Assembly (NCBI GenBank): GCA_002238585.1
Contig: MPMQ01000009.1
Coordinates: 1 to 64,000, forward strand
Reading direction: 5' to 3'
Length of the DNA stretch: 64,000 nucleotides
Origin: Kistimonas sp. bin40
Lineage (GTDB): Bacteria; Pseudomonadota; Gammaproteobacteria; Pseudomonadales; Endozoicomonadaceae
This document shows positions 23-64,000 of the stretch, piece after piece. A program made the position numbers and the translations under genes. Each line of letters opens with the position of its first letter. Positions within the stretch are counted from its first letter, which is position 1. The notes under the pieces were generated by a model. The model made no database searches, was not told the DNA's origin, and saw only the letters and a list, made by a program, of their open reading frames with translations.

Positions 23-2245
23 ATGCAACACGTGCCCACAACATCCTGTACCGCTGCGCCAGAGGCAGTGACGAGGCGGCCTCTTCCAGCTGGCCCTGGC
101 TCCCGTCCCCAAACAACCTGGCGGCATATCCGCCCTCATTTCGACTGTGGTAAACCGTCCGGAAGCCCCAGTGATCTGAGACAGATCCTGAGAATACACG
201 CGAGAGAAAAACCCTTTGTCTGTTCATATGAAGCCTGTGGACGTTCGTTTGCACATCCAGGCCCCTGGAAAAATCACTTGCGCATCCACACCGGAGAAAA
301 ACTCTTTGTCTGTTCATATGAAGACTGTGGACGTTCGTTTACACATTCAAGTGCCCTGAAATATCACTTGCGCATCCACACCGGAGAAAAAAACTTTTTC
401 TGCCCGCACGAAAACTGTGGACAGTTTTTCGCGGAGGCTGGTGCCCTGAAAAAACACCTGAAAACCCACCCGAGAGAAAAAACCTTTGCCTGTCCATACG
501 AAGGCTGCCAACGTGTTTGCGCTCAAGCAAGCGACATGAAAAAGCACAGGAGAATCCACACGAGAGAAAAACCTTTTGTCTGTTCATGGAAAGGCTGCGG
601 GCGTTCGTTTACGCATTCGGGCTCCCTGAAAACCCACTGGCGTGTCCACACTGGAAAAAAACCCTTTTTCTGTTCGTATGAAGGCTGTGAACGTTCGTTT
701 GCGCAGCAAAGCTCCCGGACAATTCACTTGCGTATCCACACCGGAGAAAAACCCTTTGTCTGCCTGCACGAAAACTGTGGACGTTCGTTCATGGATGCTG
801 GTTCCCTGCAAAAGCACCTGAGAACCCACTCGGGAGAAAAACCTTTTGTCTGTCCATACGAAGACTGTCGACGTTCGTTCGCTCAATCAACCGACCGGAA
901 CAGACACCTGTTCATCCACACGGGAGAAAAACCTTTTGTCTGTCCCCGGGAAGGCTGTTGGTATTCGTTTACGCATTCAGGCAGCCTGAAAGCTCACATG
1001 CGTCTTCACGCCGGGGACAAACCCTTTGTCTGCCTGTACGAAGACTGTGGACGCCAGTTCGTACAATCAGGCGGCCGGAACAAGCACATGAAAAGCCACT
1101 CAGGAGAAAAACCCTTTGCCTGCTCATATAAAGGCTGTGGGCGTGCGTTCGCGCATTCAGGTGATATGAAAAGACACCTGCTCCTTCACACCGGCAAAAA
1201 AGACTTTGTCTGTCCGCATGACAGCTGCGGACATTCGTTCGTGCAATCAAGCGACCTGAACAGACACTTGCATGTCCACTCAGCAGAAAAGCCCTTTACC
1301 TGCCCTCGCAGGGGCTGCACAAAACGATTCAGGCAACCCGGTGCACTGAAAGCGCACCGGAACACCCTCACCACAAGGAAACACCGCAGTTGCGTCCCGG
1401 ACGGCTGTATACAACAGGTCGGCACAAAACAGGTCGGCACAAAAAGGAGCCTTGCCCTTCGCGCAGGATCGCAAAATGCAGAAACAGCCGTTTTCTGCGT
1501 CCGGAAAGGCTGTAGCACACCATTGAAACACAGCGACGCGCGAACGCATCCGCTGCCGGTCCATAGCGCAACGCGGCCCTATGTCTGTCATTACCCAGAG
1601 TGCAACAGGCGCTTCCTGCAGCTTCTCGCGCTCAAAATGCACCAGCGTCGCCAGACCGGTGAGCAGGTCGGCATCAGCTCCGGCCAGAGCTACAACCCTG
1701 GAGTTATACGAGAGTGCTCGCTCCCGCCAGAGGTCTCGTCCCCTGCCGACGACCGCCACTGTCGCTTGCCTGCGCCCTCCGGCCACCCCGCCAGGCGCCA
1801 ATCTACCCTGACAATCGGTCCGTATCGGCACAGGGCCAAACAGCCCTGGCTTCGTCCTGGCGGCGGCACGCGACAAAGAGTCACGGGACACCCTGTCCTC
1901 AAACCACAGGGTCTGGTTCGCACCAATGCAGGACAGGCCAGTTCTCCCGGTTATCAGCCATGGCGTGAGCCTGGGGGCCAGCAGCCGGGAGGCACAGCCT
2001 TGCTCCCCGCCGCAGCCATCAGTATCAGTCATCAGTTGCCCAAAGGAGTCCGGTGGGATTCTGTCGTGAGAACACACGACAGTCATAACACCACACCCGC
2101 CGGGGAGGTAACCACCGGGATCCCGGCAGGACACTACCGCTCAGTTATCACCTGGGTGTCCGGCGGCATTGTTTACAAGACACCACCGGGGCAATACAGC
2201 CCTGGCAGACCAAATCTGTCGCAGGAGGCAGCGGACCATCTCTGA
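23..2245 (+). CDS. zf1: long C2H2 zinc-finger protein with complete tail
   Basis: Predicted DNA-binding protein of 740 aa. After a Thr/Pro/Arg-rich N-terminus and a degenerate first finger (DCGK), 13 TFIIIA-type fingers run from about residue 67 to 450, each C-X4-C-X12-H-X3-H with TGEKPF-type linkers. The linker region carries two further finger-like motifs, one beginning CHYPECNRRF. The tail module reads HYRSVITWVSGGIVYK. The start is an ATG after CCGGATACCCCA, the box found before its paralogues. The usual TAG stop is TCG here, adding SQEAADHL before TGA. The 15-nt unit CAGGTCGGCACAAAA is repeated at 1415-1444. Promoter lies outside the window. DNA binding follows from the family; cellular role and target are unknown. 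Confidence 0.85.
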   Translation: MQHVPTTSCTAAPEAVTRRPLPAGPGSRPQTTWRHIRPHFDCGKPSGSPSDLRQILRIHAREKPFVCSYEACGRSFAHPGPWKNHLRIHTGEKLFVCSYEDCGRSFTHSSALKYHLRIHTGEKNFFCPHENCGQFFAEAGALKKHLKTHPREKTFACPYEGCQRVCAQASDMKKHRRIHTREKPFVCSWKGCGRSFTHSGSLKTHWRVHTGKKPFFCSYEGCERSFAQQSSRTIHLRIHTGEKPFVCLHENCGRSFMDAGSLQKHLRTHSGEKPFVCPYEDCRRSFAQSTDRNRHLFIHTGEKPFVCPREGCWYSFTHSGSLKAHMRLHAGDKPFVCLYEDCGRQFVQSGGRNKHMKSHSGEKPFACSYKGCGRAFAHSGDMKRHLLLHTGKKDFVCPHDSCGHSFVQSSDLNRHLHVHSAEKPFTCPRRGCTKRFRQPGALKAHRNTLTTRKHRSCVPDGCIQQVGTKQVGTKRSLALRAGSQNAETAVFCVRKGCSTPLKHSDARTHPLPVHSATRPYVCHYPECNRRFLQLLALKMHQRRQTGEQVGISSGQSYNPGVIRECSLPPEVSSPADDRHCRLPAPSGHPARRQSTLTIGPYRHRAKQPWLRPGGGTRQRVTGHPVLKPQGLVRTNAGQASSPGYQPWREPGGQQPGGTALLPAAAISISHQLPKGVRWDSVVRTHDSHNTTPAGEVTTGIPAGHYRSVITWVSGGIVYKTPPGQYSPGRPNLSQEAADHL

Positions 2246-2496
2246 AAAAACCCCAGGGTCTCACCAGCCAAAGGCAGCTGCGCATGCCGCTCCCGGGCTG
2301 TTGCCACATCAGTCCCATCGCGCAAAGACGGGAACAGCCCTGCACATCCGTCCGCGACGGCTGAGGAAAACCAGACCTGCGGTTGATCGACAAAACGCCG
2401 CTACGAACAGCGCCTGCTGGCGCGTACAGGAACTGCGTCCGCCCCTTGTTTTCAGACACCAGACTCTACCCGGCAAAGCTGTCGGTCGGAAACACA
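2246..2496. other. zf1-zf2 intergenic spacer
   Basis: No coding potential beyond shadows of neighbouring frames. The stretch is closely similar to the spacers after zf2 and zf3 (shared text such as GCATCCGTCCGCGACGG and CTGTCGGTCGG), so it belongs to the duplicated unit. No T-run terminator is visible. Confidence 0.6.
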
Positions 2497-2526
2497 CCTG
2501 ATCAAGATAACAAGATCGTCACAGGG
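2497..2526 (+). promoter_or_regulatory. leader dyad of zf2
   Basis: CCTGATCAAG followed by ATAACAAGATCGTCAC. The TGATCA core is intact and the second dyad has one arm weakened (GATAAC/GTCAC). It lies 61 nt upstream of the zf2 start. Confidence 0.5.
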
Positions 2527-63622: not shown

Positions 63623-63746
63623 CGGAATGGGGTCGCTGACCAATAGCAGGGCCTGGACACCAGGCACAATCTGTCTGAGGCCCCGCAGCTGACAACCTCG
63701 ACGCTGTTTCCATCCAGGTACACCAGGCACAGACCGCCCGTGGAAA

Positions 63747-64000
63747 CTACGGGGTCTGTGTATCCGGGCCTTGCCATGGCCGCAGGAGTAAAGGGCGCAA
63801 TACAGCGTCCAGCACCAGCGGCGCGGGTGTCGCCAGCCATGGCATCGGACAACGTAGCTCTTCATCCAGGAGCAACAGGACCAGCAGCTGCCCTTCATAC
63901 TGCTGCTGCCGGCCGCACCGCACCTTTTGTGCCGCAGGAGTGCTCCAGGATTCAGACCCGCGTGTCTGAACAGTACTGCGTTGCCCTTCAGCAGCGGCAC
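63747..64000 (-). CDS. zfD: C-terminal end of a further - strand family member
   Basis: Partial gene entering from the right edge. One frame (codon phase ending at 63749) reads QQQYEGQLLVLLLLDEELR and then LVLDAVLRPLLLRPWQGPD before TAG at 63747-63749. The LLLRPW matches the zfB module. This frame overlaps the upstream extension of zfC, and it looks more protein-like than that extension. Fingers, if any, lie outside the window. Confidence 0.5.
   Translation of the reverse strand, partial: AAAEGQRSTVQTRGSESWSTPAAQKVRCGRQQQYEGQLLVLLLLDEELRCPMPWLATPAPLVLDAVLRPLLLRPWQGPDTQTP

What the first reader, a model, noticed from the sequence alone, without database searches (positions are those of the whole stretch)
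23..64000. A 64-kb array of about 34 intronless C2H2 zinc-finger genes with little else
Seen: 30 tandem + strand genes and 4 - strand genes, nearly all the coding DNA, with roughly 350 fingers by my hand count. Known: C2H2 clusters of this size are typical of animal genomes, where genes carry introns and KRAB, BTB or SCAN domains; none is present here. Inference: a symbiont or parasite may have built a combinatorial DNA-binding arsenal, plausibly nuclear effectors.
Basis: partly seen in the sequence, partly recalled or inferred. Interest (0 to 1): 0.95.

Follow-up and report, generated by a model that had tools for sequence, protein, structure and literature searches.

The report
Bacterial zinc-finger arsenal for host DNA
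A bacterium from a family that lives with marine animals carries at least 197 different genes for animal-style multi-zinc-finger proteins, 33 of them in this window, in which the positions that read DNA in animal proteins evolve unusually fast; the proteins are predicted to be exported into animal cells, where each would likely bind its own sites in the animal's DNA.

Summary
In detail: 33 intronless C2H2 frames (30 plus, 3 minus strand) with 362 finger motifs fill the window. It is not host DNA. The assembly is a gammaproteobacterium of the family Endozoicomonadaceae; genes with the window's leader and tail lie on a contig with mnmG. At least 197 such genes with about 1,890 fingers occur in the 0.56 Mb examined. 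In 38 non-overlapping paralogue pairs the DNA-contact positions have dN/dS 1.25 (1.10-1.43), other positions 0.72. No two genes share a contact string. C2H2 matches over the cut-off occur in 28 of 37 family genomes, against 1 of 369 (this genome itself) across the class. Relatives built other arrays on dissimilar N-termini, some with Sec-like signal peptides, some fused to SET methyltransferase domains. The window genome encodes type III secretion genes; its zinc-finger N-termini are Ser/Thr/Pro-rich and lack Sec-like signals. Best reading: lineage-specific, diversifying DNA-binding effectors aimed at host chromatin. Export and DNA binding are inferred, not shown. A 2025 review mentions zinc-finger enrichment in Kistimonas; the searches run listed no report of these arrays, their selection or the SET fusions.

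The parts
23..2245 (+). C2H2 gene 1, 12 fingers, conserved tail motif; its leader would lie before the contig start
   Evidence: starts of all genes are inferred from the conserved N-terminus
2588..3769 (+). C2H2 gene 2, 8 fingers, GTG start inferred
4267..6327 (+). C2H2 gene 3, 13 fingers, GTG start inferred, tail motif
6642..8288 (+). C2H2 gene 4, 13 fingers
8598..10307 (+). C2H2 gene 5, 15 fingers
10517..11995 (+). C2H2 gene 6, 6 fingers, tail motif
12189..13664 (+). C2H2 gene 7, 11 fingers, tail motif
14018..15547 (+). C2H2 gene 8, 10 fingers
15396..17105 (+). C2H2 gene 9, 11 fingers, tail motif
17519..19078 (+). C2H2 gene 10, 11 fingers, tail motif; start uncertain
19256..20653 (+). C2H2 gene 11, 10 fingers, tail motif
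20856..22874 (+). C2H2 gene 12, 13 fingers, tail motif
23251..25251 (+). C2H2 gene 13 (P0002 starts further upstream), 14 fingers, tail motif
25629..27491 (+). C2H2 gene 14, 12 fingers, tail motif
27568..29400 (+). C2H2 gene 15, 7 fingers, tail motif
29687..30970 (+). C2H2 gene 16, 9 fingers, tail motif
31273..32532 (+). C2H2 gene 17, 8 fingers
32845..35049 (+). C2H2 gene 18, 13 fingers, tail motif
35426..36757 (+). C2H2 gene 19, 9 fingers
36928..39261 (+). C2H2 gene 20, 14 fingers, tail motif
39553..41409 (+). C2H2 gene 21, 10 fingers, tail motif
41488..43245 (+). C2H2 gene 22, 10 fingers, tail motif
43379..44905 (+). C2H2 gene 23, 12 fingers, tail motif; leader below threshold
45151..47280 (+). 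C2H2 gene 24, 22 fingers (longest array of the window)
47786..49948 (+). C2H2 gene 25, 15 fingers, tail motif
50208..51698 (+). C2H2 gene 26, 10 fingers, tail motif
51805..52641 (+). C2H2 gene 27, 5 fingers (short)
52881..54503 (+). C2H2 gene 28, 11 fingers, tail motif
54883..56769 (+). C2H2 gene 29, 15 fingers
57136..58608 (+). C2H2 gene 30, 6 fingers, tail motif
58617..59873 (-). C2H2 gene 31, 7 fingers, second class (no leader element, no tail motif)
60035..61744 (-). C2H2 gene 32, 10 fingers, second class
61919..63865 (-). C2H2 gene 33, 10 fingers, second class; frame open to the window end
31185..31216 (+). example of the shared 32-base leader element, about 85 bases before the inferred start codon; found before 28 of the 30 + strand frames

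Best explanation
The window is part of the chromosome of an Endozoicomonadaceae bacterium that carries at least 197 C2H2 multi-zinc-finger genes, whose proteins are predicted to be exported into animal host cells and likely bind host DNA, each with its own sequence preference. In the leader-bearing class each gene is a shared chassis (leader, Ser/Thr/Pro-rich N-terminus, then a basic stretch, often a conserved tail) around a variable run of fingers (shown). The four positions that contact DNA in known fingers change faster than synonymous sites in the pooled pairs while the rest of the finger is held back (shown). The genes lie in tandem (shown) and so probably multiplied by tandem duplication; the bacterium would hold a large set of different DNA readers. 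Delivery is inferred to use the type III secretion system whose genes this genome carries; entry into the nucleus and altered host transcription are inferred. In relatives the same principle appears on other chassis, with Sec-like signal peptides or SET methyltransferase domains.
For: Bacterial chromosome: 3.78 Mb assembly, 96.5% complete, 0.3% contamination; one full bacterial 16S, nearest among plasmid records to Halomonas and Legionella at 86%; mnmG, and by Pfam domain purC, rsmE, bioF-type and hrpA genes, beside zinc-finger clusters; first named MnmG relatives Sansalvadorimonas, Parendozoicomonas, Kistimonas. The mnmG contig C183 carries frames with the window's leader (8 of 9 pieces) and tail motif (3 of 9). 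Scale: 199 frame pieces, 198 distinct, one possibly split, so at least 197 genes; 1,893 fingers. Selection: contacts dN/dS 1.25 (1.10-1.43) against 0.72 elsewhere in 38 non-overlapping pairs; G208 2.40 against 0.73, 23 pairs. 199 of 199 contact strings differ; 2 of 19,701 frame pairs share three consecutive contact quadruplets. Nearest solved structures include ZNF568, GLI, PRDM9 and CTCF. Family-specific: over the cut-off in 28 of 37 family genomes, in 1 of 369 (own) in the class. Export signals in some relatives: Sec-like in 36 of 50 G208 frames and 64 of 67 G214 frames when a non-ATG start is allowed, with TTG at one place in 56 of 56 examined; 3 of 5 in G050, 1 of 1 in G116. Chromatin link: of 55 SET hits in G208, 41 were listed and the 39 that fall in stretches I held all lie inside zinc-finger frames; SET above cut-off in two finger proteins of G220, same genus, one keeping an NHSxxPN motif. 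SctV and SctC above cut-off in this genome. N-termini Ser/Thr/Pro 43% in 87 pattern-selected frames against 22% in 34 other frames. Neighbours include an F-box and three WD40 proteins.
Against: No export or DNA binding was measured. Only 1 of 160 frames of this genome has a Sec-like signal, and that string lies upstream of the likely start. Sec-like signals are also missing in 12 of 12 G185, 27 of 28 G163, 16 of 16 G197 and 3 of 3 G220 frames, the last being the same-genus SET proteins. Ser/Thr/Pro richness is a weak sign of type III export. No SET domain in this genome. The leader was not seen in the fetched type III stretches L122-L124. The contact excess over 1 is not firm in the closest pairs (872 of 1,000 bootstraps, 12 pairs at 80% identity or more), and G163 gives 0.99. 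Linkers of the exact form H[TS]GEKP make up 453 of 1,541 seven-residue linkers, a loose form with [KR]P 1,063. Fingers of G163 and G185 mostly have Ala at helix position 3, unlike typical DNA-reading fingers. 7 of 37 family genomes have no C2H2 match at E 0.01, among them two of five same-genus relatives. Codon preference agrees with core genes (r=0.82), but G208 arrays reach 0.76 with the same core. No structure model could be made.
Confidence: 0.6

Rival explanations
1. The arrays act inside the bacterium, as regulators of its own genes or as silencers of phages and mobile DNA, and diversify in an arms race with those, as KRAB zinc-finger genes do with retroelements.
For: No Sec-like signal in 159 of 160 frames of this genome. 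Contact diversification fits any arms race over DNA targets. Each gene of one class carries its own leader, compatible with expression in the bacterium.
Against: Some family members with other arrays carry Sec-like signals or SET domains. C2H2 matches over the cut-off are concentrated in a host-associated family (28 of 37) and rare elsewhere: 1 of 369 in the class, own genome included; of 11 matching genomes in the order sample, 4 are from other families. No PADLOC model matches (4 proteins). No match in 50,697 phage records.
Confidence: 0.2
2. The zinc fingers are exported but bind host proteins or RNA rather than DNA.
For: C2H2 fingers can bind proteins or RNA (recalled). G163 and G185 fingers have nearly fixed Ala at position 3. 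Exact H[TS]GEKP linkers are a minority, 453 of 1,541. F-box and WD40 neighbours act through protein contacts (function recalled).
Against: In this genome diversification is strongest at the four DNA-contact positions taken together, although position -2 also varies strongly. The nearest solved proteins are DNA readers.
Confidence: 0.15
3. The contig is animal or protist DNA misbinned into a bacterial assembly.
For: Fingers resemble animal ones; the first named hits of P0002 are animal zinc-finger proteins.
Against: Core bacterial genes on the same contigs; shared leader and tail between the window and the mnmG contig; uninterrupted frames; similar GC3 and codon use; comparable arrays in single-contig genomes whose lengths match Endozoicomonas sp. 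8E and 4G.
Confidence: 0.02
4. The arrays are decaying gene duplicates without function.
For: Same-genus G222 has fingers scattered over all three frames, with many N; a few window frames are short.
Against: 5.4% missing finger slots (92 against 1,601 intact steps); dN/dS 0.72 outside contacts; conserved leader and tail.
Confidence: 0.03

Closest known systems
KRAB zinc-finger gene clusters of tetrapods (recalled, with abstract starts seen)
   Same: tandem clusters of poly-C2H2 genes, variable finger number, diversification at DNA-contact residues
   Different: bacterial, intronless, no KRAB domain in the 9 proteins scanned; genes of one class have their own short leader
PRDM9 and the PRDM family (PR/SET domain plus C2H2 array; recalled)
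   Same: relatives G208 and G220 fuse a SET domain to a C2H2 array; contact positions under strong positive selection in G208
   Different: the window's genes have no SET domain; the G220 SET domain is nearest by sequence to KMT2D among solved structures and only weakly like PRDM2 (17.9 bits, cut-off 27), so the likeness is of architecture; many G208 proteins carry a Sec-like signal, and at least 36 SET hits lie in one tandem array
TAL effectors of Xanthomonas and Ralstonia (recalled)
   Same: bacterial multi-gene sets of modular DNA readers that act in the host nucleus after type III secretion; proposed here
   Different: unrelated fold (C2H2 fingers, not TALE repeats); animal-associated bacteria; secretion and activation untested
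SET-domain nuclear effectors NUE (Chlamydia) and RomA (Legionella)
   Same: secreted bacterial SET proteins that modify host chromatin; precedent for the SET part (abstract starts)
   Different: the abstract starts seen mention no C2H2 array
Ros/MucR bacterial zinc-finger regulators
   Same: bacterial C2H2-type DNA binding (cited in PMC12491435)
   Different: recalled as short single-finger regulators; here 3 to 22 eukaryote-type fingers per protein
Zinc-finger enrichment in Kistimonas (PMC12491435, 2025 review, passages seen)
   Same: same family; [quoted passage not shown]
   Different: the passages seen describe no tandem arrays, contact selection, leaders, signal peptides or SET fusions

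Membership tests
C2H2 (Krueppel-type) zinc-finger proteins | Tandem CX2-4CX12HX3-5H fingers matching zf-C2H2 | tested here: met
   PF00096 above its cut-off in all 9 window proteins scanned
C2H2 (Krueppel-type) zinc-finger proteins | TGEKP-like linkers between fingers | tested here: inconclusive
   of 1,541 seven-residue linkers, 453 are H[TS]GEKP and 1,063 fit H..x[KR]P; many degenerate
KRAB zinc-finger proteins | KRAB domain | tested here: not met
   no PF01352 listed for 9 window proteins
KRAB zinc-finger proteins | tandem clusters with diversifying DNA contacts | tested here: met
PRDM-like SET plus C2H2 proteins (window genes) | PR/SET domain | tested here: not met
   0 SET matches in G000
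PRDM-like SET plus C2H2 proteins (relatives G208, G220) | SET domain and C2H2 array in one protein | tested here: met
   G220 SET 42.4 and 43.7 bits against cut-off 22.4; 39 of 39 G208 SET hits examined, of 55, lie inside C2H2 frames; the single G208 protein scanned alone scored 19.9, below cut-off
Type III secreted effectors | type III secretion genes in the genome | tested here: met
   SctV 953.8 and SctC 494.9 bits, above cut-offs; SctX-like 26.1, below 30; SctV above cut-off in 36 of 37 family genomes. The full set of genes was not surveyed
Type III secreted effectors | N-terminal export signal | tested here: inconclusive
   Ser/Thr/Pro 0.43 against 0.22, Asp/Glu 0.04 against 0.08; no signal predictor was available
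Type III secreted effectors | demonstrated secretion | not testable with these tools
   needs a secretion assay
TAL effectors | TALE repeats | tested here: not met
   no such Pfam match listed for 9 window proteins
Ros/MucR regulators | single prokaryotic-type finger | tested here: not met
   5 to 22 eukaryote-type fingers per window gene; the single-finger definition is recalled
Anti-phage defence proteins in PADLOC | match to a defence model | tested here: not met
   0 families for 4 proteins
Host (animal or protist) contamination | no bacterial genes linked to the arrays | tested here: not met
   mnmG, and by Pfam domain purC, rsmE, bioF-type and hrpA genes, on contigs with arrays

The most novel reading that the evidence does not exclude
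One bacterial family has repeatedly evolved its own counterpart of the animal KRAB-ZNF/PRDM9 systems: hundreds of fast-diversifying, exported zinc-finger DNA readers, some carrying histone-methyltransferase domains, which rewrite host chromatin at chosen sequences. N-terminal chassis without detectable similarity in six sets compared and four classes of finger repeat length point to repeated, independent amplification under a host-parasite arms race for DNA sites.
Probability: 0.5. Interest if true: 0.96.

Novelty: new variant of a known kind. Interest (0 to 1): 0.9.

Why it matters
Large poly-C2H2 repertoires with diversifying DNA contacts are known from animals. A bacterial genome with about 200 such genes, in a family where 28 of 37 genomes show C2H2 matches over the cut-off and some fuse them to SET domains, would mean that animal symbionts can evolve sequence-specific control of host chromatin on a large scale. 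It would give a concrete, testable mechanism for how Endozoicomonadaceae act on corals, sponges and bivalves, a natural library of zinc-finger arrays, and a second natural class of bacterial DNA-reading effectors beside TAL effectors.

Tried and rejected
Host contamination was rejected. A match to anti-phage defence models was looked for in four proteins and not found; phage records gave no match, plasmids three distant ones. A sigma-70 promoter reading of the leader was not supported by the consensus scan of 25,000-44,000 (2 sites found, 4.4 expected), so I call it a leader element with a partial dyad (left half in 21, right half in 19, strict TGAC-N6-GTCA in 9 of 23 sites). A coding reading of the leader region was dropped, since frames start or shift differently among the genes. 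The tail motif search was defined by a pattern, so invariance at the pattern's own positions is by construction; free positions such as the Lys after it and the Cys before it still show less amino-acid than synonymous change. Likewise the near-zero dN/dS at Cys/His ligands is conditioned on finger detection; the missing-slot count (92 against 1,601) is the fairer measure. The search for the tail region (P0001 residues 580-740) found one protein, P0015, which is the window's own gene 3. The search for related loci gave nothing with P0002 and five loci at 29-38% identity with A1. My signal-peptide test is a hydrophobicity heuristic, not a trained predictor; it found 0 of 3 G214 frames until the finger pattern was loosened and non-ATG starts allowed, and it finds none in 16 G197 frames whose N-termini look hydrophobic to me. 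Organism names for G185 and G214 rest on equal contig lengths.
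Full report
OBSERVATION. The window holds 33 open frames with C2H2 arrays, 30 on + and 3 on -, with 362 finger motifs; five mononucleotide shuffles gave no finger at the stricter motif, which counts 223 in the window. Genes have 5 to 22 fingers, median 11. Pfam agrees, and in nine window proteins scanned (24 were not) only zinc-finger models passed their cut-offs, apart from one marginal DUF5472 match lying on fingers. The finger unit is 30 residues, CX4C type: 1,387 steps of 30 and 174 of 31 in this genome. No tRNA and no Rfam match were found.

WHOSE DNA. The window is contig C168, bases 1-64,000, of a prokaryote assembly of 3.78 Mb, 96.5% complete, 0.3% contamination. 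Its one 16S match is 86% identical to Halomonas and Legionella, the best among plasmid-collection records. MnmG on contig C183 has unnamed relatives up to 81% and its best named ones at 71-72% in Sansalvadorimonas, Parendozoicomonas and Kistimonas. Same-family genomes G185 and G214 have contig lengths equal to those listed for Endozoicomonas sp. 8E and 4G, so I take the family as Endozoicomonadaceae. Zinc-finger clusters sit within a few kilobases of mnmG (C183), of genes with purC, rsmE and bioF-type domains (C127) and of an hrpA-type helicase (C138). The window's contig shows only zinc-finger genes; it is tied to C183 by a shared leader (8 of 9 C183 frame pieces) and tail motif (3 of 9). Third-position GC is 0.58 for the arrays and 0.61 for eight other genes of the assembly; codon preferences correlate at 0.82, but arrays of G208, G163 and G185 also give 0.76, 0.60 and 0.57 with those genes, so this is supporting evidence only.

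SCALE. In 564 kb of the assembly I count 199 frame pieces with 1,893 fingers; one gene is counted twice at a stretch boundary and one neighbouring pair may be a split gene, so at least 197 genes; 193 pieces have five or more fingers. The frames sum to 335 kb stop to stop, about 9% of the assembly, an upper value. I chose contigs from the 150 PF00096 candidates scored, of 2,165, so the counts are lower bounds.

ANATOMY. A 32-base element stands before the inferred start, in 20 of 23 aligned window cases 82 to 93 bases before it and in three at 150 to 158. Scanned over 0.66 Mb it gives 83 sites, 77 of them upstream of zinc-finger frames, and none in four shuffled stretches. By frame it precedes 75 of 199: 28 of 30 window + frames, 18 of 18 on C15, 10 of 10 on C140, 8 of 8 on C149, 8 of 9 on C183, 2 of 3 on C208 and 1 of 6 on C192, and none on the other contigs, such as 46 on C154, 22 on C42 and 11 on the - strand of C168. 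So there are at least two classes, and in this contig they meet tail to tail near 58.6 kb. The element resembles a promoter or operator, but the sigma-70 scan does not support a promoter. In 87 frames selected by an N-terminal pattern the first residues are Ser/Thr/Pro-rich (0.43 against 0.22 in 34 other frames) and poor in acidic residues (0.04 against 0.08), then basic (Lys/Arg 0.21 at residues 19-36). A tail motif around SVIAWVSGGIVYK occurs 45 times, 43 of them in finger frames, 21 of the 30 window + frames among them.

SELECTION. Among 38 non-overlapping paralogue pairs (each finger run used once; 198 fingers compared) helix positions -1, 2, 3 and 6 have dN/dS 1.25 (1.10-1.43), other non-ligand positions 0.72 (0.66-0.78); 999 of 1,000 bootstraps exceed 1 at the contacts. 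At 75% identity or more it is 1.31 (1.08-1.62, 22 pairs); at 80% or more 1.24 (0.86-1.77, 12 pairs), not firmly above 1. G208 gives 2.40 (2.05-2.84, 23 pairs), G185 1.42 (1.07-1.92, 6 pairs), G163 0.99 (0.85-1.17, 14 pairs). By single position, -2 and some surface positions also vary strongly. All 199 frames have different contact strings; 1,269 distinct contact quadruplets occur among 1,893 fingers, and 2 of 19,701 frame pairs share three in a row.

RELATIVES. PF00096 matches occur in 30 of 37 family genomes at E 0.01, 28 over the cut-off. At E 0.001 they occur in 11 of 194 genomes of the order sample, 7 of these from the same family, and in 2 of 369 of the class sample, own included; over the cut-off only the own genome. 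Large arrays were read in G214, G163, G185, G208 and G197, broken ones in G222. Finger units differ: 30 (G000), 28 (G208, G197, G220), 27 (G163, G185), 34 or 37 (G214). Pre-finger regions show no similarity between lineages at E 1e-3 except G163 with G185. I read this as repeated amplification on different chassis. Sec-like signals: 36 of 50 G208 frames, 1 of 160 G000, 0 of 12 G185, 1 of 28 G163, 0 of 16 G197, 0 of 3 G220; 64 of 67 in G214 with relaxed start, 3 of 5 in G050, 1 of 1 in G116. SET domains: 55 matches in G208, of which 41 were listed, 36 of them in the 3.78-3.92 Mb array and 3 near 6.20 Mb; these 39 lie inside finger frames, 39 of 62 G208 finger frames. G220 of the window's own genus has SET above cut-off in two finger proteins, one nearest to KMT2D among solved structures, with NHSAQPN aligned to NHSCAPN. 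The likeness to PRDM proteins is thus one of architecture. The window genome has no SET match.

MECHANISM. Shown: bacterial origin, scale, shared chassis, contact diversification, type III secretion genes SctC and SctV (SctV above cut-off in 36 of 37 family genomes). Inferred: export of the window's proteins, probably by type III secretion because Sec-like signals are missing; nuclear entry; binding to host DNA; effect on transcription. The Sec-like signals and SET domains of some relatives are the strongest support that such proteins work outside the bacterium and on chromatin. The main rival, an internal role in regulation or defence, is not excluded for this genome.

LITERATURE. [quoted passage not shown] its supplements were not open to me. 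PMC9743535 (passages) reports RING-type zinc fingers in Endozoicomonas. In PMC11521996 the find tool counted no use of the term. NUE (PMC2904774) and RomA (PMC10653858) were seen as abstract starts in a listing. PMC3126818 and PMC4592553 on animal zinc-finger genes were seen as abstract starts. By titles and abstract starts, searches listed no report of such arrays, of contact selection, or of SET-C2H2 fusions in bacteria; the library lacks most subscription papers and preprints. The TAL effector, PRDM9 and Ros/MucR comparisons and the usual meaning of helix positions are recalled.

Noticed in passing
G202:C1:4951472-5021365: A same-family genome has 21 SET-domain matches, many of the listed ones in a 70-kb stretch, but no C2H2 match at E 0.01: another chromatin-type expansion.
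   Followed up: no
G222 contigs C56, C626, C538 (L104-L106): Same-genus relative whose 30-residue fingers are scattered over several frames with many N: a broken or badly assembled array.
   Followed up: partly
L020:205-10601 and L021:8872-10059 (contig C183): An F-box protein with weak WD40-type matches, three WD40 proteins and a CARD-like protein (below cut-off) flank a zinc-finger cluster: likely further host-directed proteins.
   Followed up: partly
plasmid records CP101108 (Candidatus Cardinium sp.), NC_014838 (Pantoea sp. At-9b), CP074271: Finger-like matches occur on three plasmids, one under an RHS-repeat annotation and one in a dust-mite symbiont.
   Followed up: no
L074:206-1132 (G116, other family of the order): A protein with several fingers and a Sec-like N-terminus outside the family.
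   Followed up: no
L094-L100 (G214): Finger genes with an invariant TTG before the signal peptide in 56 of 56 examined, suggesting a TTG start.
   Followed up: partly
L061:4749-9943 (G163): Tandem paralogues beginning MDQIKL...SALSHSWHRHSES beside zinc-finger genes, function unknown.
   Followed up: no
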